Assembly (NCBI GenBank): GCA_943704415.1
Contig: CALSCO010001662.1
Location: 1 to 25,489, forward strand
Direction: 5' to 3'
Length of the DNA stretch: 25,489 nucleotides
DNA from: Parvularia atlantis
Lineage: Eukaryota; Opisthokonta; Rotosphaerida
The position numbers and the translations under genes are program-made. Below, piece by piece: positions 1-19,430 of the stretch (the stretch's first letter is position 1; every line of letters starts with the position of its first letter). The notes below the pieces were generated by a model. It did no database searches, had not been told where the DNA came from, and saw nothing but the letters and a program-made list of their open reading frames with translations.

Positions 1-471
1 CGCCGCCCGCCCGCCGCCCTCCCCGTCCGCGCCCCACGCGCCCACCAGCTACGCCGATCCGCGGCGGCCGCCCGGCCACGACGACGACGACGACGCGATG
101 GAAAACCCGCTCAACGAGTGGTGGTGCGCGCGTCTGCTCTTTGCTCTGCTCTCTCTCTCTGTCTCTCGCGTGCGCCTCACGCCGCGCCGCGCCACGCCAA
201 AGGTACGCCATCAAGACGTACCAGGCGCCGTCCGAGGAGCAGCTAAGCGCGATCGCCGGCGAGCCGCTGCAGCTGCTGGACGACTCGGACAACGAGTGGT
301 GGTACGCGCTCTCGCCCCGCACCGAGCTGGCCGGCTACATCCCGGCGCTGTTCATCGAGGTGCGGCGCCCTCCTTGTTGTCGTCGTCCGCCGCTCACGAC
401 GACGACGCGCACAGTCGACCGAGTCGCGGCGCGCGCGCCTCAACACGGCCAAGAACAAGCAGGCGCGCGGC

Positions 472-563
<92 letters not shown>

Positions 564-1726
564 ACCATCGACTGACGCCGCCGCCCGCGCAGCTCACGCT
601 GACGATGAAAGAGGACTATGAGCGCGCGGCCAAGCACAAGGCCGGCAAGAAGAAGAAGATCTCGTTCGACACCATCATCTACTTCGACGACGGCACGCAG
701 ATGGCCGCTTCACAGCAGCGCAGCAGCGCCACGTTCAAGCGCAAGAGCTTCTCGCAGCTGCTCGCGTCGGCCAAGGCGACCCTCACCACCGGCGCGCAAG
801 CCGCCCAGGCAGAGCCCGTGCGCGACCTCCGCGCAGAGATGGGTGTCCTGCGCATCCACGCAGACATCTGGAACCTTGAGGCGACCTACCGCGGTGCCGT
901 CGCCGCCCGCTCGCCTCACCGCGCCCGCGGCCGCTCATCCCGCCGCCCACCGCGCAGCCGTCAAGGTCACGAATGAGACCACCGCGGCCGAGGTCCTGCG
1001 CTCCGCCCTCGAGCGCTTCAACGCCGTGGACGACGGCAAGACCGAGTACGGACTATACCTCGTCGTCGACGGCGTCGGTGCGCCGTGCCGCGTGTCCCAT
1101 ACCCTGGGCAGCGCGCCGCTCACCTGCCGTCGAAAGAGACGCGCATCCCGCCGCACGGCTTCCCCTTTGTGCAGCTCAACAGCGTGCCTGAGAAGGCCAA
1201 GGCCAACGCCAAGATCCAGCTTAAGAAGCTACAGCCCGAGAAGGCGCGCGCCGGCCCGGCAGTGCGCCGCCGCTCTCGCTGACCGCGCCGCAGGACGCCA
1301 TCCCGCTGCGCGTCTACGGCGCGGAGGACATGTACAAGACGATCATGATCGACAGGCAAACGACCGTCGGCGAGGTGCGCACTGCTGCCGCCGCCGCCGC
1401 GCCACGCGTCGCACTCAGCCACACGCACGTGCAGGCCGTCAGCAGCGTCGTCAAGAAGTTCAAGCTCAGCTCGGACGACACCATGTTCCGCCTGCGTGAG
1501 GTCAAGAACGGCACGGGTGCGCCGAGCCACAGAGCTTGCGCGCACACAAGCGAAAGACCAGCTGAACGCCCGCCCCGCGCTACCAGAGTCCTTCTTCGAG
1601 CCCGAGAGCCTGCTGTACGACAAGGTGATCAAGGCCAACGATGGCAACAGCATCAACCAGAAGTTCTTCCTCGCGCGCAAGGCACGTAACGCCACATCGG
1701 CTGCGCCGCCGCTCACGACGACCGCT

Positions 1727-1771
<45 letters not shown>

Positions 1772-3741
1772 CCGCGCCAGGCCGACACCGGCGGCCCCGT
1801 CGCCGTGCGCATCTACGGCCACGGCATGGACCTCGATGTCGCGTACCGCGCGGTGCTGATCTCGGCGGTCATGGCCACGCCCGAGGTGCGCGCCGTGCGG
1901 CCTCGCCACCCCCGCTGCTCACGCGCCGCGCAAAGGTCACGCGCATCGTGCTCGAGCGGTACAACGCCAGCGACGGCCCCGCCGCGTACAACCTCGTCCT
2001 CGTCACGACCGGCCAGGGCGCGTTTACTGCTGGTCTTTCGCGCGCACCGCGCCTCTGACGCCCACCGCAGAAGAGCATATCATGGCCGAGAAGGAGTTCC
2101 CGCTCGCGATGCTGCAGGAGCGCGAGAAGAAGCACCCGACCGCCATCACCAAGATCCACCTGCGCAAGCGGACCGACACGACCAGCCTGACCACGCCCGC
2201 GGTGGTGCGCTGCCGCCACCCCCACGCCCGCGATGATGCGCAGCCTCATGACGGCGCGCGCAGTCCGCGTCCGAGCGCATTGTCATGACCAAGATGCCCA
2301 TGCGCGTCTACGCCGACTACCTCACCGACGGCGCCACGGACTTCAAGACGGTGCGCTCATTGTCGTGCGCGGGAGCAGCGTCGCGCTCACCGGCCGTCGC
2401 CGCGCCAGATCCTCCTGTCAGACACGACGCGCGCCGGCACGGCGCTCAAGCAGACGATGGAGAAGTTTAAGATCACGCCGACCGAGCCGTGCTACCTCGC
2501 CATGTCGTCCGACCAGCAGGGTGCGCTGGGCCGTCGCGGCGGTCGGGCGCGGGCGTGTCTCAATGCAGCCACGACTCTTCAGGGCTACGCACGCTCGACG
2601 ACGAGGAGATCCCACTGCTCGTGCGCAATGAGATGATCCAAGACAACCTGAGCAACATCCGCTGCGTCATTCGCAAGGTCTGCGCGACGGGTGGCCCTTG
2701 CAGGCGCCCCGTCCTGACGCGCGCACACGGCAGGGGACAATCGACCACAGCAAGGCCAAGTTCGCCGTACGCGTGATGGGGCACCGGGTCTGGCCGAAGG
2801 AGGGGTACAAGAGCCTCATGGTCGACGTGCAGGCCACCGCGCGCGAGGTGCGCAGCAGGGCGCAGTGCGCCACGGCCGCAGTGCTGAACCGTCCCGGCAG
2901 CTGGTCGCCATGGCCTACGCCAAGTTCAAGCTCACAAGCCCGTCGGTCGACCAGCTGTGCTTGTGCCTGCTCACAAGCAACCCGGACGACGACACAGCCA
3001 AGGGTGCGCGGACGCGTGCCTCGCCGCCGCTGCGTGTTCACACGCCCACGCGCCCCGCGGCAGACATCCGCCTACCGCACGACTACGTGATCACGCACAA
3101 GGTCCGCATGGCCTCGTACGGGCTCTACACGACCAAGGAAGCCGCCGGGCTCCCGACCGTCGTGCGTAGTGGCGTTCAGCGTGCGGTGTGTGGCGGCTAA
3201 CACGTACGCACGCGCGCTCGCAGGGCGCCGACGGCACTTCCGAGGGGCGACGCGTATCGCTGCTCATGAGCGAGCAGTCGGACGCGGCGGCACAGGCGTC
3301 TGCCAACGCGGCGGCCAACGAGGAGGCCGGGACAAAGGCGGCCGAGAGTGCCAAGGGCGGGCGCGGCGTGGGACCATCACCGCTGGCGGCGGTAACGTCG
3401 GCCGACGACCTGACCGAGGGCGGCGAGGACGAGGAGGACTACTACGTCGAGGAGAGCATGTTAAACCCGCTCATGGCCGGCCAGATGGACGACGTGAACG
3501 ACCCGTTGCAGCAGGTACACCTAAGCGCAATGACGATCACCGTGGCAGGTACGCCGCGCCCCTCGTCCCGCAGCCCCGCCGGCAGTGCTCACGCGTGCGC
3601 CGTCGCCCAGGCACCGACGTTGAGGGCACTATCTCGCCCTCGGTCATCCGCGAGCGGCCGCACTCTGTCATCGACAACCAGGACATGCTGCACAAGCTGA
3701 ACGAGAAGCTGCGGCTCGAGGAAGGGACGCCCGAGGAGTAG
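1..3741 (+). CDS. SH3 protein with five tandem RA-like domains (5' partial)
   Basis: Exons: <1-123, 203-359, 415-471, 593-893, 958-1077, 1137-1261, 1294-1374, 1435-1516, 1587-1681, 1781-1885, 1936-2017, 2071-2204, 2264-2350, 2409-2520, 2583-2677, 2734-2847, 2901-3003, 3064-3161, 3224-3548, 3611-3741. About 841 residues are visible. The frame is open to the window edge, so the start may lie outside; ATG at 98 is the first in frame. An SH3 domain spans roughly residues 36-93, with ALYDY-like YAIKTY, the WW of NEWWYAL and the GYIPALFIE end. A basic linker follows. Then come five similar modules of 85-105 residues starting near 195, 295, 381, 488 and 586. Each opens with a strand such as IPLRVYG, VAVRIYG or FAVRVMG and has a KF/RF/RY helix end, as in Ras-association (ubiquitin-fold) domains. 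The tail (690-841) is acidic. It is probably a cortical or signalling scaffold binding small GTPases, but I do not recognise the family. Donors at 472, 1262 and 2018 have alternatives (463, 1244, 2033). Confidence 0.75.
475..556. repeat. (CT)41 microsatellite in an intron
   Basis: This is an uninterrupted CT dinucleotide tract of 82 bp. It fills most of the intron at 472-592 of the SH3/RA-like gene and sits between the donor and the acceptor at 591-592. It forms a natural pyrimidine tract on the transcribed strand. Confidence 0.95.
1729..1770. repeat. (CA)21 microsatellite in an intron
   Basis: This CA dinucleotide tract of 42 bp lies inside the predicted GC-AG intron 1682-1780 of the SH3/RA-like gene. 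The intron is 99 nt and the frame stays open through it, so retention would add a His-Thr run; this leaves some doubt about splicing here. Confidence 0.95.
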
Positions 3742-3962
3742 AGCGGGCGGGCACGCGCGTAAACATTCGCTTGTTCAAACCCTTTCTGCGATCCCTCCGT
3801 TCCCCCGCCCTCCTCCTGCTCAGCGTAGCTCCCAATCCACCCCCGTGTGTGCGTCTGTTCCAGCCAAGACCGAATTTGCAGTAAACATAGGCCTACTTAC
3901 CCGTACGTGGGGCCAACAGGCATTGGGGCATTGCACTGATCTCTTGTGCCGCGCAGCGGCTG
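3742..3962. other. Convergent intergenic region
   Basis: These 221 bp lie between the stop of the SH3/RA-like gene (+) and the stop of the TauE gene (-). The sequence is locally pyrimidine-rich and less GC-biased than the genes. It must hold both 3' ends. I see no further gene and no clear AATAAA signal. Confidence 0.6.
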
Positions 3963-6149
3963 CTACCTGCTGCTGCACAGGCTGCGAAAGCCGTAGCTCC
4001 CTGTGGCAACGAGCGGGTGAGCGGCGCAGCACGTCGTGGGGCCGGCAGCGCACCGGCAGTGAGGTCGCTCGTCGCCTTGAGCACCGACAACACCTGGCAG
4101 CGCAGCGAGCGTCAGGGGGACACGCGCGGCAGCCGGCCCGGCGCACTGTCATGGCCACGCAGCCCGCGCCGATGTAGGCCGCGAGGAAGAACGTGATGAA
4201 CGAGAGGCTGCCGTACTTGCGGAAGAGCATCCGCATCAGGAAGTGCCCCAGCACGCCCGCCGCGAAGCCGAGCGTGACGTAGACCAGGGCTGCCGCGCGC
4301 ACGTCAGCAACCGCCTCGCGGAGTTCTCGCGCGCGCACCGGGGTAGATGGGCAGGCGGTCGAGCGCGGCGTACTGCGACCCGGAGGCACGTCAGCGCAAA
4401 GCCGGTCAAGCGACCAGCGCGCGGCGCACCTGGACCATCGCCGACGAGCTGCTGAGGATCAGCAGGAAGCCCGACGTCGCGGACGAGTGGTGCGGGTTCT
4501 TGAGCACTATTTGGCGGGGGGGCGGTCAGCACAGCACGCGCGACCACCCGCACGACGCGCGCGCGCACCAAAAAGCAGCAGCGGGCCCTGGATGGTCGAC
4601 CCGCCCACGCCCAGCAGCGCGCTCACGAGGCCGGCCACGAATGACGCCAGGACAGTGAGCACCGTGTTGCGCAGGTTCCACTCCATCGGCTGCTCGCCCA
4701 TCGCGCCGTCGTCGTCGTCGCCGATCTCGCCCAGCTGCGCCCGCAGCTGCTTGTCGTGCTCAGACTGGCGCACAAACCACCGCACGGAGCCGACCGTGAC
4801 GACTGCGAGCACGGGGACGGCGCTGCACAGCACGAGCCAGTACGCGGCCGACCCGCACGCGATCACCCCGGCAGACTCGACCGCGATGTTGATCGCGAGT
4901 ACAAACACCTGCGCGCGGCCGCGTGAATGTGCGCGTCTCAGCCGTCGTCGCGCAGCGCAGCAGGGCGCACCCACGACAGCCCCAGCACGACGAAGATGCG
5001 CCAGGGGTACTGCGGCCTGCGCAGCGCGGCCGGCCGCGGTTTGTGCGTCGCGTGGTCGTCGTCGTGGTTGTTGCCGTCGCTGCGGCTGTCGATGGCGGCG
5101 GCTGTGTCGTGCTTGCGCTTGCTCGTCAGCGACGACACGGCGTGCTCCTGCGTGAGCGACGCAATCGCGCCCGTCGACGCCGGGGTGTGCCCCGTGTCTG
5201 TGCCGTTGCTGCCGAGCCGCCCCATGGCGAAGACGGTCGGCCGGGCCGCGGTCGAGGCGCGGCGGTGGCCCCAGACGCCGTTGGCTGCGCTGCTCTCGTC
5301 GTCCGAATCGTCGGGTGCGAGCGTGGCGTGGTGCGCGTCGCGGTCGTACCGCGCGGCGGCGTCGGCGTCGGCGCGCACGTGGTCGCGGCGGACGATGCGG
5401 TCAAACTCGTCAAAGTCGTGGTGCAGCAGGCCGTCGCCGTCGAGCCCGCCCGGGTACATGCGCGGCTCGAAGGGCACGTAGCCGGCGATGACGAGCGTGG
5501 GTGCGGTGCCGGGTCCGAGCAGCGGCTCGTCGCGTGCTGCCGCGCCCTTGCTAGCCGCCGTGACGCCGCCGCCGGCCTTGCGCGCGCGCGCCATCTCGCG
5601 CCTGCGCATCTTGATGCCCGACATGAGCGTCTTGTACGAGGTGAAGGCGAGGAGCAGGCTGAGGAGGACGGCGATGAGGTAGTAGGGGAAGATCTTGTTG
5701 AGACGCACGCCGAAGACCGAGCCGAGGAGGATGGCCGGCTGCAGCACGAGCGCGACGCCGTAGTTGATCAGCGGCCGCAGCCCGCTCGCGTCGCGCGCCG
5801 GCATCGTGTACAGGTTCATCGCCTGGCGCGCCGCGATCAGCCGCCCGCCCGCTGCCGTCCGCCCCTCCGACGCGCCCGCACCAGCGCCCCGCCGAAGACG
5901 GCGCTCATGCTGACGGGGATCGCGGCAAACTCGGGCACTTGCGCCACGAGGAGCAGGATCGGGATGAAGAGCGCCGCGCCTGCGTCGCCCCGCGCGCGCG
6001 CATCATACACACACGCGCCGCACCACGCGCACGATGCGCATCGCCGCACCGCCGACGCCGCCCAGGCTCGCGCAGATGCCCGAGAGGAACACGAGCACGG
6101 TGCCGGCCGCGGCGAGGCCCGGCTCGACGTCGATCATCAGCAGTACCAT
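3963..6149 (-). CDS. TauE/SafE-family membrane transporter
   Basis: Exons (minus order): 6149-6050, 5979-5882, 5822-4971, 4908-4569, 4506-4430, 4372-4339, 4289-4147, 4093-4054, 4000-3963; 573 residues. The family (sulfite/sulfonate exporter-like, also called DUF81) consists of two homologous membrane halves, each opening with a glycine-rich helix. Both are visible: GVGGAALFIPILLLVAQ near residue 30 and GLVSALLGVGGSTIQGPLLL near 425. The second is followed by the typical SSATSGF and by several hydrophobic helices. The protein ends GSYGFRSLC, as many fungal and protist members do. Between the halves lies a hydrophilic loop of about 200 residues (roughly 145-345), rich in Asp, His and Ser, which probably faces the cytosol. 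The substrate cannot be told from sequence. The ATG at 6149 was chosen because the reading frame upstream meets a stop. It is divergent from the RS-protein gene, whose start is 45 bp away. Confidence 0.85.
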
Positions 6150-6194: not shown

Positions 6195-7090
6195 ATGGAG
6201 ATCCCGCCCATGAGCGCCGCTGAGCGCATCGAGCAGCGCAAGAGCCGCGGCGTGACGTGGTGCGCGCGGCGCGGGTGCGCGCGGAGCACGGGGGGGCTGA
6301 GGCGGGACGCAGGGAAGAGTTCAACGAGGAGCGGCGCAAGCGCGAGGAGGGCGTGGGGCGCCCGATGGACACGGCGCAGTACCGGCGGCTGCTCGACCGC
6401 GAGCGCGAGGAGAAGATGCGCGAGCGCGCGCAGGCCCGAGACAAGGAGCGAGACGGCGACAGCGGCAAGCCGAAGAAGAAGAAGAAGGGCAAGAAGGACA
6501 AGGGCGACGACAAGGACAAGGACGCCAAGAAGAAGAAGAAGAAGACGAGCAAGAAGAAGGACAAGAAGAAGGACGACAAGGTGCGCGCCCGTGCGCCAGC
6601 CATCGCCGTGCCGCCGCGCCCTCACGCCCTCGCCGACGCATTCGCGCTGCAGCCCGAGCGCGCGTCGTCGCCCGTGCGCCTGTCGGACTTTTTCCGCGCG
6701 ACCGCGAGCGTCAGCGCCAGCAGCAGCGACAGCAGCGACAGCAGCGCCGAGGAGGAGGGCGAGATTCGTGCGGCGCCTCGTGAGCGGACGCGCGATCGCG
6801 AGCGGGCGCGTGGGCGGAGTCGCGAGCGCAGTCGGGAGCATGATCGCGAGCGTAGCCGCAGCCCCGCTCGTCGCAGCCGCAGCCCCGCTCGTCGCAGCCG
6901 CAGTCCCGCTCGTCGCAGCCGCAGCCCCGCTCGTCGCAGCCGCAGCCCCGCTCGTCGCAGCCGCAGCCCCGCTCGTCACAGCCGCAGCCCCGCTCGTCGC
7001 AGCCGCAGCCCCCCTCGTCGCCGAAGCAGAAGCCCGCCTCGCAGGAGCAAGAGCCCGTCTCTCAAGCGCCACAGGTCAGGCACGCCGTAA
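6195..7090 (+). CDS. Lysine-rich RS-repeat nuclear protein
   Basis: Exons: 6195-6259, 6313-6580, 6653-7090; 256 residues. The second intron (6581-6652, 72 nt) is frame-neutral but has a GTGCGC donor, a CTCAC branch-like site and a GCTGCAG acceptor; if it is retained the protein has 280 residues. The N-terminus carries GVTWEEFNEERRKREEG, then a charged coiled-coil-like stretch (MDTAQYRRLLDREREEK) and a Lys/Asp run. A serine/acidic patch follows, and finally an RS domain made of RSRSPAR repeats with variants RSRSPPR and RSKSPS. RS domains are SR-protein-kinase substrates found in splicing and other nuclear RNA proteins, so a nuclear RNA-processing role is likely. No RRM is present, so this is not a classical SR protein. 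The TWEEF region faintly recalls the animal FAM133 family, which I do not regard as an identification. Confidence 0.75.
6852..7015 (+). repeat. 21-bp tandem repeat encoding RSRSPAR
   Basis: A 21-bp unit of the type CGCAGCCGCAGCCCCGCTCGT recurs about seven times head to tail with a few base changes. It lies inside the RS-protein coding sequence and encodes the heptad RSRSPAR. The near-identity at DNA level, including third positions, suggests recent expansion. Confidence 0.85.
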
Positions 7091-7115
7091 GAGGACCCAT
7101 GACACTGCCACAGAA

Positions 7116-7527
7116 TTACACAACACGGTGCTGGAGCAGCGCGGCTGGCGGCTGGATGAGGTCGTCGGCCGCAACGCACATGAGCCTGGCGAGCATCGCG
7201 CCGAGCCGGTTGTAGATGGCTCGCTTGTTCTTGACAGGCGCGTCGCGGTTGTCCGTCACGGGCTGGTCGGCCGCGGCCCCACCCACGCTGGCGGTCCAGA
7301 GCGGCTTGATGGCCAGAAGCTGGTACGCGCGTTGTACTTGACGAAGTATGCGGGCCGGACGGGTCTCGCTCGCGTTGGAGCGCGCGGTCGTCTCGTCGCC
7401 AGGCGTTTGGCGGAACAACAGGAGCACGGCGTTCACTGTTTCTTTCTGTGTGAGTGCGCGCGCGGCGCCAGCGTGCCTTGTCGTGAATGTTGTCGACCCT
7501 TCTTCGCGCCTGGCGCGTCGTCATCAT
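7116..7527 (-). CDS. Possible small gene, unknown function
   Basis: Proposed exons 7527-7477 and 7445-7116, giving 126 residues. The intron 7446-7476 would be a GC-AG intron (AAG|GCACGC, CTCAC branch, CACACAG acceptor). A GT donor at 7497 with the same acceptor (52 nt intron) is equally in frame and gives a 119-residue product. The second exon has an open frame of 330 nt with plausible protein composition: a hydrophobic stretch (VNAVLLLFRQTPG), a Leu-rich helix (RILRQVQRAYQLLAIKPLW) and a second helical part (KRAIYNRLGAMLARLMC). I recognise no family. Support comes from the codon pattern, the splice signals and the otherwise empty 600 bp between the RS-protein gene and AOAH. The stop lies 25 bp from the stop of the convergent RS-protein gene. 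It could still be a chance frame in GC-rich DNA. Confidence 0.4.
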
Positions 7528-7725
7528 CGATAGGTGGCTCAGGCGGGTGCGAGTGTCCTCTCACACGCACCGGCGCGCGGCGCAAGCAGGCAGAATCTGG
7601 CGTGCCCACAAGCGCTATAAAGTCTGAACGGCCTCATTGGGCCGTGCACGCGCCGTGCTTGACCGTGCGCACACCGTGCGATGACACATTTTCATGTTCG
7701 AGTTGCACATGCAACAGCACAGCCA
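7528..7725. other. Intergenic region downstream of AOAH
   Basis: These 198 bp separate the AOAH stop from the small putative gene, both on the minus strand. The region holds the AOAH 3' end and any promoter of the small gene. The only notable site is a TATAAA on the plus strand at 7616-7621, which faces away from the small gene. I see no coding potential. Confidence 0.5.
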
Positions 7726-8296
7726 TCAGTGGCCGCCCTGGTCGCCAAAGAGCTGGTCGATCAGCGCGTTGTTGGGGTTGACCGGGCCCAGCCAGCTCGG
7801 CAGCTCCAGCTCCATCCGGTCCCAAAAGAACTGCGCGCCCAGCGCGTTGGCCAGTTGCGACGGCTGTGCGTTGCGCTTCACGTCAGGCGCCGACCGCCAC
7901 ACACGCGCATGCGGCGCACGTGAAAGCCGTCCGCCAGCTCGATCAGGTCCTTGGCCTTGCCGCCCTGTGACTCCCAGTACTCGATCACCTCGAAGATCTG
8001 CACGCCGCTCGCCCGTCAGCATGCCGCGCGACCGCACTTGTGCCGCGCACACACCGGGTAGTCGAAGTAGGCCATGTCGAAGCGGTTGAAGCTGGGCGCG
8101 ACAAGCGGGGTCAGCCGGAGCACGCGCGTGCGCAGCCGTGCGTAGTGCCGCACCGGTACTCGTTGATGATGTCAATGTACTGCTGGTTGAGCTGCACCGC
8201 GCGTTCGCTGGCCGCGTCGCGATACGTCTGGTTCGAGTTGAGCCAGGCCGCGCAGGGCGAGATCTCGAGGCAGTTAAGGTAGTCGTACAACGCTGT

Positions 8297-8334
<38 letters not shown>

Positions 8335-10263
8335 TGTCACTTGCTGTGTCCAGAGCGAGCAGGGCCGCACACCGGCATAGGTTACGTTGATCGGGTGCGT
8401 CTCCGCGTTCATCGTGTCCCAGAGCACGCGGCCGTCGACGATGCCGATGAAGAGCACGTGGCTGCCGTACGGCAGGATCGTGTCGAGGTACACCATGGCT
8501 GCGCGCGCGCGCGGCGTGGGCTCAGCGGCGCGGCACGGCAGCGATGCGCGTCTGCGCACTGTTCAGCACGCGCTGCTTGAAGTCTTGCGGCGTCGTCATG
8601 CGCTCGGTGGTCGGGTTGCTGTTGCAGATATCGTTGCCGATGAGCGCGTACGTGACCTGCCGTGCCGCGTCGCTCAGCGCACGGACCGCACGGCTCACGC
8701 AGCGCCGCAGCGAACGCGCACCACGACGGGGTAGTCGGTTGTCTCGTTGCGGTTGGTACTCTTGGCGATCTTCTCCATCGAGCCCACACGTGCGCCGTTG
8801 ACGCCTGGCGTTGGGCAGGGCTCAGCACCGCGCAGCAGCAGGGCGGCTGGCGCCCGCGCACGCGCGCACCGATGTTGTGGTAGTCGCGGTGGTTGCAGCG
8901 GTTGCGCTCGCGCAGGCGCTTGTAGATGCTGTCGACGGGACCTGTGCGTGCGTGCGGTCAGCGGCGCACGCCAGCGCGGAGCATGCGGCTCGGTAGGTGC
9001 ACCGGGACAGTCCTTGTTGCCCTGCTCGAGGAAGCCCGTTGAGCCGGACTGGTGCGGCCAGTCGAGCTCGTTCGAGGCGACGAGGAGGATCTGGTCGTAC
9101 GTGTCGCGCGTGATCGCCGACGCGTTGATGTAGTTGGGCTGCCGTCAGCCTCGGCGCGTGAGCGACACGGTCCGGGCCCGACAACACGCGGCGCAGCCCG
9201 CACCGGGATGCTGAAGTGCGCCGTGGCCGAGTCGCCGAGGAAGATGAGGCCGCGCATGTCCGAGCGGCTGCACAGGCGCTCCTCCCACGAAACGCCGTTC
9301 TAACCCATGTGCACTTGCCGTCAGCGCTCACGCACGCGCGCCGGCCTCCGCGATTGCGCACCTCGTCCACGCCGTAGATGCCGTTGCAGTTGTGGTCGAC
9401 CTCGGGGCCGTACAGCGACACCTTGCGGCCCGGGTAGACCTCCTTGACCTCGTCGTTGCAGTCGCGGCCACGCCAGTGCCAGCCTGTGCGGCGTGCGCGT
9501 GAACCCGCCTGCTGTGTGCAAACACATCCCCGCGGGACGCACCGCGGAAGGTCGGGATGGTCGAGAACGAGTCGAGGTCTGCGTCTTGCAGCGGCAGATG
9601 CTGGTCGACGAAGCGCTCGAGCATCTTGCAGAATTCGGAGACGACGGGCAGGTCGCAGATGGCCTTCTCGCCCACGCCCGAGTACTTGAGCGTGAGCGGC
9701 TGCTCGTTCGGGTCGACCGTCGCGAGCACGCTCGTCGGCGGGAGCGGGAAAAGGTTGCACTGCGCCCGACGTGAGCCGCATGCCGGTCGCGCGATCGCGT
9801 CGCGGCGCGCACGGTCGGGTCGGTGCAGAGGCCGATGCGGCGGCAGATGATGTCGGCCGTCTGGCGCAGGACGATGCCCTCGATGATGCGCTCACCTGGA
9901 TCCGCCGATCGTCAGGCCGCGAGGTGGTCCGCGCGGGTGGTCCGCCGCACCGTAGCGGTCGAGGAAGAGCACGCAGGCGGCCTGCAGCTCCGGCTCGGGC
10001 AGGGTGTCGCAGTACTTCTTCGCGGCCTCGATCACCTCCTCCGAGTGGATCACCGCGAGCTGCTCAAAGAGGCCGACGATGAGCGTGCACGCGGCGCACG
10101 TGACGCCCTGCACGCGCGCGTCGGCTCAGCCACGCCGCACACGAGCACCGATCTGCCCCGCGCGACGCACGTCCTGTGCGCGCGCGGCCGGCGCCCAGCC
10201 CGCCGCCGCGATGAGCAGCAGCAGCACGAGGGCGGACAGGGTCACGGGACGCGTCGCCGCCAT
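7726..10263 (-). CDS. AOAH: Acyloxyacyl hydrolase (AOAH), secreted
   Basis: Exons: 10263-10171, 10107-9951, 9895-9813, 9759-9543, 9483-9362, 9299-9204, 9138-9003, 8941-8870, 8804-8722, 8656-8560, 8498-8373, 8292-8154, 8091-8055, 7997-7920, 7863-7726; 557 residues against 575 in human AOAH. A signal peptide covers residues 1 to about 29. A saposin-B domain follows with its cysteines (CAAC at 35-38, YCDTLP, AAC, IIC, GLC). Next comes the family-specific stretch FRGWHWRGRDCNDE...VYPGR...DHNCNGIYGVDE, which matches the calcium-binding part of human AOAH. The GDSL esterase part has FLGDSATAHF (nucleophile Ser248), ALIGNDICN and DGFHP (Asp509, His512). The C-terminus FGDQGGH is identical to human. 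In animals the enzyme removes secondary acyl chains from LPS and acts on some phospholipids; the fungal substrate is unknown. No active-site residue is missing. It is divergent from cwc15, with 83 bp between the starts. Confidence 0.95.
8298..8334. repeat. GCGGGC hexanucleotide array in an AOAH intron
   Basis: About six copies of GCGGGC lie head to tail inside the AOAH intron 8293-8372, close to its acceptor. On the transcribed strand it reads as C/G-rich GCCCGC units. Confidence 0.9.
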
Positions 10264-10346: not shown

Positions 10347-11411
10347 ATGACCTCGGCGCATCGGCCGACCTTCACGCCGGCCCAGGGCCGCGCCGCGCCG
10401 ACGCTCTCGTCCAGCCTGAGCAACAAGGACACGACGCTCGCGCCGCTCAAGACGCGCCAGCCGGGCCAGGTGCGCCGCCGCCGCGCCGCTGACGGGGGCG
10501 GTCGCTTGACGGCTCCGTGCGCATGCACGGCGAAGGGCACGGCAGAGGAGATCGCCCAGCGCGACCTGCGCGAGGAGCTCGAGCGCAAGGAGCGCGAGGC
10601 CGCCGAGAAGCGCGATAAGAAGGGCAAGGGCGTCGTGCACGGTGCGCACCAGACGCCGTTGCGCCGAGCGCGTGCTCAATGGCGTCGCGCAGACGACGCA
10701 TCCGGGCAAGCGCCGCGCCCCGTGCCGCGCATCTCGGCCGCGACGGCGCTGCAGGACGCTGACGTGCCGCAGAGCGACGACGACGACGATGACGATGACG
10801 ACGACGACGACGACGACGACGCACGCAGGAAGCGCAAGCGCGTCGCGGCCGGCAGCACCGACGACGACGGCGAGGGCGCGGGCGGCGCGAGCGCGAGCAG
10901 GAGCGGCCGCGGGGGTGACGGCGCCGACGAGGGTGGCGAGGACGACGACGACGACGACGACGACGACGAGGACGACGACACGGCCGAGCTTCTGCGGGAG
11001 CTTGAGAAGATCAAGAAAGAGCGCGCCGAGGAGGCCGCACGCGCGGTGCGCATTGCTCTCCCTTGCGCGACCGCCCGCCTGCCCGTCTGACCGTGGTCAC
11101 GGTGCGCGGTGCAGGCGCAGCAGAAGATGGAGGCCGAGGAGCGCGCGCGCAAGGAGCAGATGCTCGCGTCCAACCCGCTCATGAACGCGGGCGCGGCGGG
11201 CGGCGCGGCGGAGGACTACGCGATCAAGCGCAAGTGCGTGCGCGCGTGAGTGCGTGCGAGTGCAAGCGCTGACCGTGCGCCGCGCAGGTGGTACGACGAC
11301 GCCGTGTTCAAGAACAGCGCCAAGACCGAGCCCGAGCTCAAGAAGCGCTTCATCAACGACACGATCCGCTCCGACTTTCACCGCAATTTTATCAGCAAGT
11401 TTGTGCGGTGA
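10347..11411 (+). CDS. CWC15: Splicing factor Cwc15/Cwf15
   Basis: Exons: 10347-10469, 10536-10641, 10693-11045, 11115-11233, 11288-11411; 274 residues. Cwc15 is a component of the Prp19-associated (NineTeen-related) complex in the activated spliceosome. The N-terminus MTSAHRPTFTPAQGR is the family signature, followed by TRQPGQ, the helix AQRDLREELERKEREA and a long low-complexity middle. The C-terminal box DDAVFKNSAKTEPELKKRF...RSDFHRNFISKFVR is highly typical of the family. The middle contains two aspartate runs encoded by GAC/GAT repeats (about 10777-10820 and 10940-10980). They give a very acidic segment of the kind known in the family but longer than usual. The intron 10642-10692 is frame-neutral, so its removal rests on the GTGCGC donor and CGCAG acceptor. 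The start is the only ATG that gives the conserved N-terminus. Confidence 0.93.
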
Positions 11412-13658: not shown

Positions 13659-14677
13659 TCACATGCCCGGGCCGCTCAAGGACGGCCACGAGTTGGGCGA
13701 CACCGGCGCCTCAACGGCCCCGTCTAACGTGTAGACCGGCAGGATGCCCGCGGTGTCGCCGCCGCCCATGAAGCCGCCCAGGGACGACCACATATCCCAG
13801 CTGTCGCCCGAGCCGAAGAGCTCGGACGGGTACGTCCACGAGCCTTCTTCGGGCGGGCGCGCCTGGAGCAGCACGAAGAGCTGGTGTGCGGCCTCGACGC
13901 TGATGCCGAGCGGCGCCGCGCCGCCGTGCGTGACGTCGTTGCCCCCCTGCACGCCGATCAGGCCCTCGCCCGCCGCCCCGTTGCTAGCCACGCGGGCGCG
14001 CTTGCGCGACCGCGCATGCATCTCCGCGCCCGCAGCGGCCGCCGCCGCGCTCTTGTCCTTGTACATCTGGTCGGTCAGGCCCGGCGAGGCGCCGAGGACC
14101 GAGAGGCGTTCGATCGCGGTCACATGCCGCGCGGCCGCGCTGTCGGTCGTTGTGCCGTTGGTATCGTCGTCGTAGGCACGGCCCGGGCGCGCCGTCGTGG
14201 GCGCCGGCCGACGCGCGCTGCCGCTTGCACGCGGCGGCGGCGGCACCGTCGCGAGGCGCGACATGGAGACGAGGCCGTTGGCCGCCTGGGCGCGCAGCGA
14301 CTTGCTGCCGCCGGCGACTTCGCCCTGCGCACCGGCCGACCGTGAGCTGTGCAGCGGCTGCGTCTCGGACGACGGCGACGGCGACGGCTGTCCGCTGCCG
14401 CCGCCGCGCCCGGCCGCGGGCGACGTGGCGATGCCGAGGCTGGTCATGGTCCGCGTCCACTGCTGCTCGTGGTCGGGCAGGCCCAGGCCGAGCAGGCGCA
14501 GGTTGCCGAGGAACCAGCCCATGCGCCGCAGCGCCGACGGGCAGAACTTTGACAGGTTGAGCAGGGCTGTGAGGCACTGAGCGATGTCCTTGCGCGCAAA
14601 CTGCTTCTCGGTGCCCTCGAGGTCCCAGAAGATGCGGATCATGTGCACGGTGCTGGGGCACGCGCGCGCACGCAGCG

Positions 14678-14754
<77 letters not shown>

Positions 14755-16881
14755 CAGGCGGCGCAGCAGGCGAGCACGCGCGCGACGCGCACCAGGCCTG
14801 CATAACGTAGTGCAGGTAGAACGGGAAGTGCTGCGCCGGGTTGTCGGTCGACCAGAGCTTGGTCAGGTGGCAGATCTCGGCGGCCGACTCGATGCACTTG
14901 CTGAGCGCCTTCTGGCCCGCGTCGACGATGAGCTGCACCGTCGGGTCATCGCGGTCGGCGCCGACGCTCGGGCGGACGAGCGGGATGCACGCGCGGAGGA
15001 GGACAATGCGCGCCGAGTGGTACGACGCGTGCAGGTGCGTCGCGGCGGGTGAGGCGCGCGCGTCCTGGAACGCCTCGGGCAGGGACGCGTGCCACGCGTT
15101 GAGCGACTCCTCCTTGCTGTGCACGGCCGAGAGCAGCTCGATCGGCGTCGTGGGCTGGATCTGGCTGTTGAGCAGGCGCATGATGCGCCCGTGCAGAACC
15201 GACAGGGCCACGAGCGCGACGAGGTAGTGGTCGTTGTCGGTCATGAGGTGGTGCACGACGGGGCTGTGCGCGCTCGGGACTGCGGCGGGGCATGCGGGAT
15301 GAGGCGAAGGCGTCGAGATAGCGGGCTAGCGCGCGCACCGTGCCTGCTGTCCTCCTGCGCCGCCTCGGCCTCGCGCGACTGGTGGCTGCGCAGACGCTTC
15401 TGCAGGATCAAGATCGTCTCGAGCGTGGCCTCGGCGTCCTGCTGGTCGATGTTGGACGGGCGCCCGAAGCCGATCGACACGTGCACGTCGAGGATGACGC
15501 AGATCCACCAAATGCGCGCGCGCATCAGCCGCACCGACGGCGGCAGGGCCGCCAGCGGCGCGTTGTTGGGGTGCAGGCCCAGCTCCTGCGCGAGCCGCAC
15601 GGCCTGCGACGCGTGCAGCCACGCGCGCTGAGCCCGGCCAGCGTTGATCGTGGCCAGCGCGAGCATGGCGTGCGCTTGGATGCACGCGAGCTGCGGCTGG
15701 TCGGCGACGTAGCTGGCGAGCGTGGCGGCGAGCGAGGGCAGTGTGAGCCAGCAGTGAAGAGTTGGCGTGCCGTGTGCACGTACACAAGCGACGTCGACGC
15801 ACGCCCGACCAGGCTGTCGACGGCCGCGGTGACGTCGTTCTTGCCGATGTGCGCCGCGAGCGCGAGGCCGAGCTGTGGGTCGAGCGTGGCCGCGAAGGCC
15901 GCGAGCGAGTCGACGAGAAAGTCGGGCGGGCGGGCGGTGCCGGGGCCGGGCGCGCTGAGCGAGGCGATAAAGTCGTCGGCGTCGAGCAAGATCGGGAGGA
16001 GGCCGTGCCAGTGCTGGCGATAGACGCGTGCCAGGTCGAGGGCGAGCTCGACAGAGACGGACGGGGCGTTGAGCGGCTCGATGGGCGGGCCGACGGGGCT
16101 ACCGAACCAGCCGCGCGGCGGCGTGAGCTCGGGCGGGGGCGGCCACTGACCCTGCTGGATCATGCGCGTGACGGCGTTCCAGCTGGAGAAGATAAGAACG
16201 TACGAGCCCGAGGTCGGCCCGAAGAAGCGCGACGTGCCGTCGATCTTGCGCGTGAGCACGGCCGGGCGCACGATCTGCGACCCGTCGTCCACGGGCGCGG
16301 GCGGCGGCGTGGTCGGGTCGAGCGGATCGGCCATGGCCTGGTCCTCGAACGCAGGCGTGTCGGCCTGGCCAGCGCGGCCGCTGTCGCCGTCGGGCGTGGC
16401 GACGGCGCTGACGCGCGGCGAGCCGGAGCGGTGCCGCGGCGCGTGCTGCCCGTGCGCGTGCGTGTACGTGTGCGTGTGCGTGTGTTGCTGCTGCTGCGGC
16501 GGCGCGACGTCGTTGCGCTGGCGGATGACGGCCATCAGAAGGCTCTCGAGCTCCTTGAGGCGGGTCTGCCATCGGCTGCTATCAGCACACGTGACGCGCA
16601 CACGCGTGACGCCGCACCGACGCCGCCGTCTGTGACCCCTTCTGCGGGCCGCGCTTGCGCTGCGGGAGGTAGCGGCAGACCGTGCCGAGGCGGACGCACG
16701 TGTCGCAGGCGGGGAGCGTGCCCTCGCAGCGCGTCTTGCGGTTCCTGCACGTCTCACACGCGCGCGACACGCGTTGCCGCTTGGCGTGCGCGTGCGCGTG
16801 TGCGCCGCCGCTGCTGTCGCCGCCGTCGTCCTCGCTATCGTCCGCGCCGCCGTTGGGCCGCGCGGGCCGCGTCGAGGCCAT
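13659..16881 (-). CDS. Zn2Cys6 fungal transcription factor
   Basis: Exons: 16881-16618, 16565-15784, 15712-15339, 15279-14793, 14652-13659; 966 residues. The N-terminal binuclear zinc cluster reads ACETCRNRKTRCEG...ACDTCVRLGTVC, with spacing C-x2-C-x6-C-x6-C-x2-C-x6-C, followed by basic RYLPQRKRG. After the first intron a short coiled coil (RLKELESLLMAV) suggests dimerisation. A Gln/His/Thr-rich linker follows. The fungal_trans regulatory domain covers roughly residues 260-600, with the typical ACIQAHAMLALATINAGR...AWLHASQAVRLAQELGLH. The last exon holds low-complexity Ser/Ala/Pro and an acidic, aromatic C-terminus (SELFGSGDSWDMWSSLGG) that could be an activation domain. Intron 15713-15783 uses a GTACGT donor. 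The ATG at 16881 was preferred over upstream in-frame ATGs because they run into the neighbouring divergent gene. Target genes are unknown. Confidence 0.9.
14679..14752. repeat. (TG)37 microsatellite in an intron
   Basis: This is a pure dinucleotide run of 74 bp, reading (CA)37 on the transcribed minus strand. It lies inside the 140-nt intron 14653-14792 of the Zn2Cys6 gene, which is the longest intron in the window because of it. Confidence 0.95.
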
Positions 16882-17024
16882 GAGTCCAATGAGAAGCGAA
16901 GAGAAGTGTGACGCTTTGGCGCGTGACTGGCCGCCATTCTGGGCGTTGCTGTGATGCGGCTGTGTTCGGCGCGCGTAGGGTTGGCTAGTTAGCGGGGGCA
17001 GCGGACACAGCGGCAGTAACGGCA
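16882..17024. promoter_or_regulatory. Divergent promoter Zn2Cys6 factor / TRF-like gene
   Basis: These 143 bp separate two divergent start codons. They contain CCAAT at 16886-16890, TTTGGCGCG (E2F/MBF-like) at 16915-16923 and the heptamer TAGGGTT at 16976-16982. The heptamer is a permutation of the TTAGGG telomere repeat and lies 42 bp upstream of the telobox-protein start. Confidence 0.5.
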
Positions 17025-17234
17025 ATGGCGGCGGAAGTGGCGCCGCACAGCGCGCCGACGGCGGCGCAGACGACGGCGCACCGCTGGGTCTTCGAGTACT
17101 TCCTGGCGCGATGCACGGACGCGCTGCTCAACGGCACGGCCGACTACGAGGAGTGGGCGCGCGCGATCGAGGGTGCGCGCCGCGTCGCCCACGGGGATCC
17201 CAACGCGCCGCTGACCGGCTCCTTTGGCGCGCGC

Positions 17235-17272
<38 letters not shown>

Positions 17273-19430
17273 AGCGTTCCGCGGCGTCTACGTGCGCGAC
17301 GACACGCACGACACGACCGTGTGGACGCGCGCGCAGCTGGCCAAGATGCTCGTGTACATCGCCCAGCAGAAGTTCGCCGAGGCCGCCGCGAGCCTCGAGC
17401 AGATGCTCGACCAGGCCGGGCTGGGCCACACCGATGCGCAGGCGCAGCTGCTGCTCGTGCTGCGCGTGCAGGTCGGCGCCCGAGGCCGCGCGCAGGCCAC
17501 GTGTGCACGCACTCACGATGCGCGCACAGGCCGTCGTCAGCGCCGCTGCAGACCCGACCATGTTCCTCCTCGCCATCAACGCCAACTTCCAGGCGCCATC
17601 GGCCGCGACCGGCACGCCGCTGCAGCTGATGATCGCGCAGCAGCTGCGCCGACTGCGCAAGCAGGCACGCCGGGCGCCCTGTGCGCGTGCATTGGCGCGG
17701 CGCACTGAGGCGCGACGCAGCTCACCGCGTGCCTCGACACGGCCGACGACGACGACGGCGACGCCGCGCCCGTCGTCGACAACCGCAAGCTCGACACGAT
17801 CGACCACGAGTACGGCCTCGAGCAGCTCGTGCAGCACGTGCGCGTCGTCGCCGACGACATCATCGCCAAGCTCCCCGCGCCCGCGCTGCTGAGCGTGCGT
17901 TCGCCAAGGACCCAGCGTCCGCACCATCACCTGACGCGCCCACGCGCGTTGCAGATGGCCGAGCGCGAGCTCGCGGGCGGCAACCGCCGCGCCGGCGGCA
18001 GGGCCAGCGCACGCGCGCCCGACGGCCGGCCCGGGAACAAGTGCGTTGGCGTGTGCTGCTTCGCCGCCGCTGAACCGGCTCACAGTGCCCTGCCGCTCGC
18101 GGCGCTGCGGCGCATCGCACCGTCCGCCGCCACGTGGCAGCGCATCATCACCGAGACCGACCCGTTCGTCAAGACGTTCCTGCGCTCCCTGCGCGGGTCT
18201 GCTGGCGCGAACAGCACGAACGACACCCGCCCGGTCAGCCGCAGGGCGAGCCCAGCGCGCCCTGCCGTTGCGAGCAGGGCGACGTCGCGGCAGCTTGTGC
18301 GGCTGGCGCAGCCTGTGAGGAAACCGAGTGCGTCGTCGTGTGCTACCGCAACATGGGTACTGACGGAGCCCCGACAGTGCGCCGCACGCTCATGCCCGTC
18401 GGCGGCAGCGAGGACGACGGCGACGACGACGAGGATGCGCTGCCGACGTCGTCCGCGGCGCAGCAGGCCCTGGACGACCTCAAGCAGTCCACGTCCAAGC
18501 TCACGTGCGTGCACCTGAGCCGCGCTATCGACCGCAGCCTGAGCCGCGCACGCTCGCAGCCAAGTCGTGAACGACCCGCTGCAGGAGCTGATCCAGCCGG
18601 ATGGGCGAGTGCACGTGCCGCGGCCACCGTGCGTTGCCTTTTCGCACGCGCGCGTGTGCAGGGCCGCTCACCGCCTCCGCAGCGCCGCCAATGGGTCGGG
18701 CCGCGGCGTCGCCTTCGATGACGACGAGACGCAGGACCCGCGCGGCCCGGCCGGGCGAGGTGTGGTCAGGCGCATGGCCGTGCCCTTCTTGTGCTCATGC
18801 ATGCTCGCTCTGCAGCACAACAGCAGGCGAAGCGGAAGCGGCACATGCTCGAGAGCTTCTCAGACGACGAGCGCGACGAGTGGCCCGAGCTGTGCGTCGT
18901 TCTCTCGCACGAGCGTGCCGGCTGACACGGCGCGAACCACAGCGGCGACTCCAGTGCCGGCGGCGGTGCACGAGCGGGCGCAGCGGCCGCTGGCAACGTG
19001 GATGACGACGACGACATCGCCGAGGACGAGGGCGCTGGGTCGCTGGACGGTGTGCGGCGGCCAGGAGAGCGCGCAGCCGTGCTGACTCGTCGCCAACCGC
19101 CACAGGGACACGGCTGCAGAACGTCAACGTGCGCGTGTTCTCGCACCTGGTCACGCACCCGGTGGTCGTCGACCCCAAGCAGCAGCGCAGGCTGCCGCGC
19201 CCCTGGACGGTGGAGGAGGAGGACAACCTGGTGCGGCCGCTGCGTCCAGTGCGGCGCACGGGCGCGCCTCACGCGCGTCCGCCCAGGCAAAGGGCCTGCG
19301 CGAGTACAACGGCACGCACAACAAGTGGGCGCGCATCCACGGCGCGTACGAGTTCCCCAACCGCACGCCGCAGGATCTCAAGGACAAGGCGCGCATCCTC
19401 AGCTTCCGCATCAAGTACGGCCTGCAGTAG
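17025..19430 (+). CDS. TRF/Taz1-like telomere-repeat binding protein
   Basis: Exons: 17025-17172, 17275-17471, 17530-17664, 17721-17894, 17955-18040, 18086-18327, 18378-18504, 18560-18628, 18683-18759, 18816-18891, 18943-19049, 19106-19230, 19287-19430; 568 residues. The N-terminal 220 residues are helical and begin HRWVFEYFLARCTDALLNG, with later KMLVYIAQQKFAEAAASLEQ; this fits the TRFH dimerisation fold of TRF1/TRF2/Taz1. The middle is disordered and acidic, with a basic KRKR patch. The last 60 residues are a single Myb/SANT domain, RPWTVEEEDNLAKGLREY...NKWARIHG...NRTPQDLKDKARIL. This carries the telobox signature (VDLKDKWRxL) with Ala where the second Trp is expected. Architecture and C-terminal position match telomere duplex-DNA binders, so the protein probably acts in shelterin-like capping. 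Intron 17665-17720 is a GC-AG intron (CAG|GCACGC). Intron 17173-17274 contains A34 and is frame-open. Confidence 0.82.
17224..17239. repeat. 16-bp perfect palindrome TTTGGCGCGCGCCAAA
   Basis: This perfect inverted repeat lies in the first intron of the TRF-like gene, immediately before the A34 tract. It has the form of two back-to-back E2F-type half sites. Confidence 0.85.
17237..17270 (+). repeat. A34 homopolymer next to a splice acceptor
   Basis: Thirty-four consecutive A residues end 4 bases before the acceptor AG (17273-17274) of the intron 17173-17274. This is where other introns carry pyrimidines. If the intron were kept, the frame would stay open and add a lysine run. Confidence 0.95.

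What the first reader, a model, noticed from the sequence alone, without database searches (positions are those of the whole stretch)
7726..10263. Complete acyloxyacyl hydrolase in a fungal genome
The 557-residue model keeps the whole AOAH plan: signal peptide, saposin-B domain, calcium-site region (RDCNDE...DHNCNGIYGVDE), GDSL serine, GND block, DGFHP and the C-terminal FGDQGGH. To my knowledge AOAH is described mainly from animals and Dictyostelium, where it deacylates bacterial LPS. Fifteen exons with the local intron style argue against recent contamination or a retrocopy. It may be an ancient gene lost from most fungi, or an old transfer. A fungus that detoxifies LPS or remodels glycerolipids with it would be new.
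Basis: partly seen in the sequence, partly recalled or inferred. Interest (0 to 1): 0.75.

Follow-up and report, generated by a model that had tools for sequence, protein, structure and literature searches.

The report
Animal-type LPS-deacylase gene in probable fungus
A probable flagellated fungus carries a complete, intron-rich gene for acyloxyacyl hydrolase, an enzyme that in animals trims the fatty chains of bacterial endotoxin, so this kind of lipase may be older and more widespread among the relatives of animals than its description as an animal enzyme suggests.

Summary
On the minus strand, 10263..7726, 15 exons splice to 557 residues that align end to end with mammalian acyloxyacyl hydrolase (AOAH): E 5.5e-140 over residues 29-557, 46% identity to the human lipase part. 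Saposin and GDSL domains, the SGNH positions and 16 of 16 mouse cysteines are kept. Only this locus matched in its genome. Codon use and introns match the neighbours, which include a Zn_clus/Fungal_trans factor, so it is a native gene, not a retrocopy or recent contamination. The host is an opisthokont (EF-1A insertion) with fungal-type transcription factors and CFAP20, a flagellar gene: most likely an early-diverging flagellated fungus; a non-fungal opisthokont is not excluded. Inferred function: a secreted or endolysosomal esterase acting on lipid A secondary chains and/or phospholipids. Vertical descent versus old transfer is undecided, since no non-mammalian AOAH sequence could be reached. 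Novelty: a new member of a known family in an unexpected lineage.

The parts
7726..10263 (-). AOAH gene: start codon at 10263, stop codon ending at 7726; 15 exons, 557 aa
   Evidence: splicing; homology; only this locus matched in the genome
10171..10263 (-). exon 1: hydrophobic signal-like N-terminus with AxA-type end (ARA|QD)
   Evidence: hydropathy only; no signal-peptide program was run
9951..10107 (-). exon 2: saposin-like domain, first part (C35, C38, C64, C76)
9813..9895 (-). exon 3: saposin-like domain, second part (C101, C107)
9543..9759 (-). exon 4: C112, linker/propeptide and start of the lipase part (C146, C155)
9362..9483 (-). exon 5: putative calcium-site region RDCNDE...VYPGR...DHNCNGIYGVDE
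   Evidence: invariant columns; weak PF11617 hit (E 0.063); calcium role recalled
9204..9299 (-). exon 6: GDSATAHF with the catalytic serine S248 (codon 9230..9228)
9003..9138 (-). exon 7
   Evidence: alternative donor 6 nt upstream of its end
8870..8941 (-). exon 8
8722..8804 (-). exon 9: NGA with oxyanion glycine G329 (codon 8796..8794)
8560..8656 (-). exon 10: IGND with oxyanion asparagine N361 (codon 8635..8633)
8373..8498 (-). exon 11
8154..8292 (-). exon 12 (C435, C441)
8055..8091 (-). exon 13 (37 nt)
7920..7997 (-). exon 14: ends in DGFH with D509 and H512 (codon 7922..7920)
7726..7863 (-). exon 15: C-terminus ending FGDQGGH
10347..11411 (+). divergent neighbour, Cwc15 splicing factor (the predictor ran it into the next gene; end read by eye)
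13659..17127 (-). Zn(2)-Cys(6) + Fungal_trans transcription factor on the same contig (fungal marker); upstream end approximate, the predictor over-extended it to 17863

Best explanation
This is an intact, apparently single-copy, native acyloxyacyl hydrolase gene in the nuclear genome of an opisthokont that is most likely an early-diverging, flagellated fungus. The product is probably made as a precursor with a signal peptide. The saposin-like part would insert into or hold a lipid, and the SGNH esterase part (S248, G329, N361, D509/H512) would hydrolyse acyl esters: the secondary (acyloxyacyl) chains of bacterial lipid A and/or acyl chains of phospholipids, either outside the cell or in a lysosome-like compartment, to disarm or digest Gram-negative bacteria. 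Shown: gene model, family membership, intact catalytic and cysteine framework, native genomic context. Inferred: secretion, activity, substrate, role, and (somewhat more likely than not) vertical descent from the ancestor shared with animals.
For: Full-length collinear match to AOAH, E 5.5e-140. Pfam PF20825 saposin 4.6e-16 and PF00657 GDSL 1.1e-11. Lipase part 188 of 410 identical to human, 180 of 410 to mouse; saposin part 27 of 83 to mouse; 16 of 16 mouse cysteines kept (species labels recalled). SGNH positions kept; at the serine one of the four PDB rows shown bears Ser and three bear Ala. GC3 0.94, codon correlation 0.99 with the other eight predicted window genes, intron median 62 against 57-80 in them and 60 in 21 sampled loci. 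Neighbours include Zn_clus+Fungal_trans, Cwc15, BRF1, ATG17-like. EF-1A with opisthokont insertion, CFAP20, Zn_clus+PAS. In Dictyostelium, aoah knockout slows killing of ingested Klebsiella (PMC8545105, passages). Mammalian AOAH also deacylates oxidized phospholipids (PMC8594946, abstract and passages).
Against: No activity, expression or secretion data. No tree with animal or amoebozoan AOAH, so descent is open. Codon correlations are partly circular, because the first predictor was trained on the AOAH CDS. No chitin synthase PF03142, p25-alpha or PACRG hit in the genome; these negatives are weak, since the same kind of search missed the split GDSL domain of AOAH itself. Brr2 scores 1698 bits to the best chain (human) against 1527 to a filamentous-fungus chain and about 1100 to yeast, and EF-1A 832 (human) against 820 (yeast); chain species recalled. 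Brf1, by contrast, matched yeast best, but no human BRF1 is in that list. A FAE1-type synthase is, as I recall, unexpected in a fungus.
Confidence: 0.66

Rival explanations
1. The gene is a genuine AOAH but the host is not a true fungus: a nucleariid or another unicellular opisthokont that eats bacteria. The finding would then be ordinary retention of AOAH in a phagotroph related to fungi or animals.
For: The EF-1A insertion only says opisthokont. Brr2 is clearly nearer to the human chain than to fungal chains. No chitin synthase PF03142 found. A CYFIP-like gene (PF07159; assignment to the WAVE complex recalled) and a TNFR/ELAPOR-like protein suit a crawling, phagotrophic cell. FAE1-type synthase is unusual for fungi.
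Against: Zn_clus+Fungal_trans in one protein beside AOAH and Zn_clus+PAS, four Zn_clus places; such factors are, as I recall, fungal and not holozoan. Zoosporic fungi also keep WAVE-complex and flagellar genes (recalled). Human housekeeping proteins evolve slowly, so a nearer human match is weak evidence.
Confidence: 0.18
2. Old horizontal transfer of AOAH from an animal or protist into this lineage, followed by acquisition of local introns and codon use.
For: Transfer of AOAH out of eukaryotes is proposed for the planctomycete 'Ca. Uab amorphum' (PMC6906331, passages), so the gene may move. AOAH is patchy even in animals (PMC1483240, 2006, reported none found in fish or insects; passage).
Against: 14 introns of the local style, codon use like the neighbours, and only 41-46% identity to mammals, so any transfer would be ancient. 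No relative was confirmed in the prokaryotic, plasmid, phage or IMG/VR collections, though the pattern scans reach only sequences with the exact motifs.
Confidence: 0.22
3. Same enzyme, but the physiological substrate is the organism's own or dietary glycerolipids, with LPS incidental.
For: AOAH has phospholipase, lysophospholipase and diacylglycerol lipase activity in vitro (title of Munford and Hunter 1992, seen only in the reference lists) and acts on oxidized phospholipids (PMC8594946). The saposin part is the less conserved one here, 32.5% identity against 44-46%.
Against: In Dictyostelium the knockout phenotype is in killing of a Gram-negative bacterium (PMC8545105).
Confidence: 0.35
4. 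Assembly chimera or contamination: an animal or amoeba gene stitched into a fungal contig.
For: A draft of 616 contigs. The 1-kb window 7001-8000, which holds the 3' end and flank of the gene, has the lowest GC of the contig, 65.1%.
Against: GC of the remaining gene windows (68.5-73.1%) is like the rest of the contig; intron signals and codon use are as in neighbours and other contigs; genes of the same style lie on both sides.
Confidence: 0.03

Closest known systems
Mammalian acyloxyacyl hydrolase (AOAH; PDB 5w78, 5w7a, 5w7d; species labels human, rabbit, mouse recalled)
   Same: Full-length collinear alignment, saposin plus SGNH lipase, 16 of 16 cysteines of the mouse chain, metal-site motifs, C-terminal FGDQGGH
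   Different: 41-46% identity; one extra cysteine C300 in a 3-residue insertion; two 4-residue deletions in the saposin/linker part and a 5-residue deletion before NVTYA; host is a probable fungus
Dictyostelium AOAH (the only putative one in that genome; PMC8545105, passages seen)
   Same: Named as the same enzyme, with a saposin domain (PMC11542183, PMC5890168 passages)
   Different: Sequence not available here, so no direct comparison was made
AOAH of the planctomycete 'Candidatus Uab amorphum' (PMC6906331, passages seen)
   Same: Another AOAH outside animals, in an organism that engulfs other cells
   Different: Bacterial host, presumed transfer from eukaryotes; no AOAH was recovered by the GTDB pattern scans, and whether that genome is in the collection was not checked
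Ordinary GDSL/SGNH esterases (for example C271 of this genome, PF13472 4e-28)
   Same: GDSL fold family
   Different: Only GDSL matches in the one exon scanned, no saposin match; related only as superfamily members

Membership tests
Acyloxyacyl hydrolase (AOAH) | N-terminal saposin-like domain | tested here: met
   PF20825 E 4.6e-16 over 34-156 and SapB_2 5.9e-05; saposin cysteines C35, C38, C64, C76, C101, C107 match mouse
Acyloxyacyl hydrolase (AOAH) | C-terminal GDSL/SGNH esterase domain with S, G, N, D/H positions | tested here: met
   PF00657 E 1.1e-11; S248, G329, N361, D509, H512 align with AOAH; the naming of these residues as SGNH positions is recalled
Acyloxyacyl hydrolase (AOAH) | Collinear full-length similarity to mammalian AOAH, above any other family in the PDB | tested here: met
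   Six best hits all AOAH, first E 5.5e-140; the best other hit is a saposin (proactivator polypeptide) at 1e-4
Acyloxyacyl hydrolase (AOAH) | Conserved cysteine (disulfide) framework | tested here: met
   16 of 16 cysteines of the mouse chain aligned with cysteine, one extra in the window protein; bonds themselves not tested
Acyloxyacyl hydrolase (AOAH) | Metal-site region DCND...YPGR...D.NCNGI | tested here: met
   Invariant residues within 190-223 of A1; calcium binding itself recalled, not tested
Acyloxyacyl hydrolase (AOAH) | Signal peptide and secretory/lysosomal location | tested here: inconclusive
   Hydrophobic stretch near residues 7-24 and ARA|QD end, by hydropathy only
Acyloxyacyl hydrolase (AOAH) | Proteolytic maturation into small and large subunits | not testable with these tools
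   Linker present (residues 114-143) but weakly conserved, 10 of 29 identical to mouse
Acyloxyacyl hydrolase (AOAH) | Deacylation of lipid A or phospholipids | not testable with these tools
   Needs purified enzyme
Acyloxyacyl hydrolase (AOAH) | Orthology shown by a tree with animal and amoebozoan AOAH | not tested
   Only PDB AOAH chains could be reached
Fungal host | Fungal-type Zn(2)-Cys(6) transcription factors with Fungal_trans or PAS | tested here: met
   Window gene Zn_clus 1.4e-08 + Fungal_trans 9.7e-15; C570 Zn_clus 1.7e-4 + PAS_3 9.9e-19; four Zn_clus places; restriction to fungi recalled
Fungal host | Opisthokont insertion in EF-1A | tested here: met
   C464 gene model has GWKKLDKKGAEVKGVTLVEALDAI; the meaning of the insertion is recalled
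Fungal host | Housekeeping proteins nearest to fungal ones | tested here: inconclusive
   Brr2 nearest human, EF-1A human 832 / yeast 820 bits, Cwc15 nearest 8xi2 and then 8ro0, Brf1 nearest yeast; no trees built
Fungal host | Chitin synthase | tested here: inconclusive
   PF03142 not found, control rang in 4 of 14 genomes, but this kind of search also missed the split GDSL domain of AOAH
Zoosporic (flagellated) fungus | Flagellar genes | tested here: inconclusive
   CFAP20 present, E 1.5e-43 for the gene model; PACRG and p25-alpha not found, no control rang

The most novel reading that the evidence does not exclude
A walled or parasitic early-diverging fungus has kept, from the common ancestor of fungi and animals, a working AOAH that it secretes to disarm or digest Gram-negative bacteria. 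The LPS-deacylase thought of as an animal immune enzyme would then be an ancestral bacteria-eating tool, lost from most fungi when phagotrophy was given up.
Probability: 0.38. Interest if true: 0.65.

Novelty: new member of a known kind. Interest (0 to 1): 0.5.

Why it matters
AOAH is described as a highly conserved animal lipase that inactivates endotoxin (PMC8594946, passages), with a killing role in Dictyostelium (PMC8545105, passages). A complete gene in a probable early fungus would help to date the enzyme and to separate an ancestral bacteria-digesting role from its later immune role. It would also offer a divergent natural enzyme for testing which residues set LPS against phospholipid preference, and raises the question of whether fungi modify bacterial LPS in their surroundings.

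Tried and rejected
Contamination or chimera: rejected on GC, intron style, codon use and neighbours.

Retrocopy or pseudogene: rejected; 14 introns, no internal stop after splicing, catalytic positions kept. Chance assembly of motifs: rejected.

Bacterial or viral relatives: two GTDB pattern scans gave 37 and 368 pattern matches, none confirmed by tblastn. IMG/VR gave 43, none confirmed. Plasmids (whole protein) and phages (lipase part only) by tblastn: none. The scans need short exact motifs, so distant bacterial AOAH could be missed; no gene like that reported for 'Ca. Uab amorphum' was recovered.

Naming the organism: a query with the 3' end of 18S rRNA found nothing (without a positive control this shows little). 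Hydrophobin, p25-alpha (52), PACRG (28), bacterial-type rhodopsin (54) and chitin synthase PF03142 (53) were not found; for the first four no control genome rang either. Brr2, Cwc15, Brf1 and EF-1A against the PDB did not settle fungus against animal relative. I recalled Caulochytrium or a Blastocladiomycota species as GC-rich candidates; nothing here confirms either. Two batches of 45 exons, 90 of the 262 that passed the filters, plus 20 exons chosen from the list, were scanned with Pfam; apart from the items listed under Noticed in passing they gave widespread families and no clear lineage marker (one search lists at most 25 families).

Papers: ten searches, all used. AOAH with fungi: 25 papers, 20 listed, titles and abstract starts seen, none about a fungal AOAH; with chytrid: none; with fungal and phylogen: one, about Dictyostelium; with horizontal gene transfer: one, the planctomycete; with protist: six. 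So no print record of a fungal AOAH was seen in this open-licence library. Subscription papers and sequence databases were not searched, and the 28-taxon AOAH tree of PMC6906331 (supplement) could not be seen.

Structure prediction was not run: the spliced protein is not a letter-for-letter translation of the window, which the tool requires.
Full report
WHAT IS THERE. The window is the whole of contig C399 (25,489 bp) of a 16.25-Mb, 616-contig assembly that has no relatives in the genome collection held. GC in 1-kb windows is 65-73%; the lowest, 65.1%, is 7001-8000, the 3' end and flank of the gene, and the windows over the rest of the gene (68.5-73.1%) are like the contig. On the minus strand from 10263 to 7726, 15 exons (37-217 nt) and 14 introns (53-80 nt) splice into 557 codons and a stop. 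Every intron is GT-AG, 11 of 14 start GTGCG and 13 of 14 end CAG; 12 of the 14 introns of the predictor's model have a CTGAC-like motif near the 3' end. Keeping any single intron introduces an early stop, 14 of 14. A small splice-aware predictor trained on seven neighbouring gene models without this one recovered 13 of 14 introns exactly; intron 7 had a donor 6 nt upstream, which would drop two residues. The same run fused the gene to spurious upstream stretches, and the seven training models came from a first run trained on AOAH, so this supports the junctions, not the gene borders.

WHAT IT IS. Pfam finds a saposin-like domain (PF20825, 4.6e-16, residues 34-156) and a GDSL lipase (PF00657, 1.1e-11, residues 243-520). 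Against 177,635 PDB sequences the six best hits are all acyloxyacyl hydrolase, the first with E 5.5e-140 over residues 29-557; the next, a saposin, is at 1e-4. Identity is 27 of 83 in the saposin part (mouse) and 180 of 410 (mouse) or 188 of 410 (human) in the lipase part; mammal-to-mammal identity in the lipase part is 80-82% (species labels recalled). All 16 cysteines of the mouse chain are matched; the window protein has one more, C300. S248 in GDSA, G329 in NGA, N361 in GND and D509/H512 in DGFH occupy the SGNH positions; of the four PDB chains shown, three carry Ala at the serine and one carries Ser, consistent with dead mutants made for crystals (that explanation is recalled). The metal-site motifs and the terminal FGDQGGH are invariant. 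Membership in AOAH is as firm as sequence can make it.

IS IT NATIVE. Predicted neighbours are a protein with five RA domains (605-3741 +), a TauE-type exporter (6149-3963 -), an SR-like protein without a Pfam match (6076 on, +), Cwc15 (10347 on, +), Zn_clus+Fungal_trans (about 17127-13659 -), a Myb protein (17025-19430 +), an ATG17-like protein (21503-19752 -) and BRF1 (25151-22355 - as modelled). AOAH GC3 is 0.94 against 0.91-0.97 in the eight other predicted genes, codon correlation 0.99 (0.89-0.99 in the others), introns per kb of CDS 8.4 against 4.5-11.3 (part of this is circular, as said, and the other models are unproved). In 21 sampled loci, 72 predicted genes hold 1,346 introns of median 60 nt, 576 starting GTGCG and 1,074 ending CAG (some of these models are antisense artefacts). 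The gene has the style of the genome.

WHOSE GENOME. EF-1A on C464 carries the insertion that I recall as typical of opisthokonts. The window factor has Zn_clus and Fungal_trans in one protein, C570 has Zn_clus plus PAS, and four Zn_clus places were found in all. These point to Fungi. A CFAP20 gene on C598, beside a Brr2 gene with introns of the same style, points to a flagellum. Against or neutral: no chitin synthase PF03142, PACRG (28), p25-alpha (52), hydrophobin (38) or bacterial-type rhodopsin (54) was found; but the six-frame family search missed the split GDSL domain of AOAH itself, so its negatives are weak. Brr2 scores 1698 bits to the human chain, 1527 to a filamentous-fungus chain and about 1100 to yeast; EF-1A 832 to human and 820 to yeast; Cwc15 is nearest to 8xi2 and 8ro0, not fungal as I recall; Brf1 is nearest to yeast. 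Slow human and fast yeast sequences may explain this, but it does not support a fungus. A CYFIP-like gene and a FAE1-type synthase on C320, and a TNFR/ELAPOR-like protein on C600, would suit an early fungus or a phagotrophic relative. I put a fungus at about 0.8.

HOW IT PROBABLY WORKS. In mammals AOAH removes secondary acyl chains from lipid A (PMC1483240, passages) and both acyl chains from two oxidized phospholipids (PMC8594946, abstract and passages). In Dictyostelium, loss of Aoah slows killing of ingested Klebsiella but not of the other bacteria tested, and the authors suggest that Aoah and BpiC open the LPS layer for a lysozyme (PMC8545105, passages). PMC6906331 suggests LPS breakdown for a planctomycete AOAH (passages). 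By analogy, the protein here would be secreted or lysosomal, bind lipid by the saposin part and hydrolyse acyl esters with S248. This is inference; the weaker conservation of the saposin part leaves the preferred lipid open.

DESCENT AND NOVELTY. With 41-46% identity to mammals, local introns and local codon use, any transfer would be old; vertical descent from the fungus-animal ancestor with later loss is the simpler reading but was not tested. No prokaryotic, plasmid, phage or IMG/VR relative was confirmed. In the paper library no fungal AOAH was seen; the supplementary AOAH tree of PMC6906331 and protein databases were out of reach, so fungal AOAH may already be listed there. I file it as a new member of a known family in an unexpected lineage.

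Noticed in passing
8297-8334: A perfect CGCGGG hexanucleotide array (6.3 copies) lies almost wholly inside AOAH intron 11, the longest of the 14 introns (80 nt).
   Followed up: no
475-563, 1729-1770, 14679-14752, 17236-17270: Long simple repeats (44 CT at 97% match, 21 CA, 37 TG, 35 A) in a 70% GC contig.
   Followed up: no
6854-7021: Eight copies of a 21-bp tandem repeat that read as RSRSPAR in one frame, an SR-like protein next to AOAH.
   Followed up: no
605-3741: Predicted + strand protein with five Ras-association stretches (PF00788, 1.6e-40), with an SH3-like reading just upstream judged by eye.
   Followed up: partly
L047 (C320:29000-35000), 2008-4164 minus: A FAE1/3-ketoacyl-CoA synthase-like gene (PF08392, 2.5e-127), of a type I recall as plant-like and unexpected in a fungus, beside a CYFIP-like gene (PF07159).
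   Followed up: partly
L032 (C600:1-10000), 3-3438 plus: Cysteine-rich repeat protein; the exon 972-2306 matches TNFR/ELAPOR1-like and, below cut-off, NCD3G, resembling receptor-like proteins of animals and protists.
   Followed up: no
L048 (C570:26500-32500): Zn(2)-Cys(6) domain followed by PAS folds in one predicted protein.
   Followed up: partly
L023 (C200:1-10000), 2932-3498 plus: DDE_3 transposase-like exon on a contig stretch of lower GC (66.6%).
   Followed up: no
L016 (C598:1-10000), 55-495: CFAP20 gene apparently truncated at the contig start (matches only the last part of the profile), followed by a Brr2 helicase gene.
   Followed up: partly
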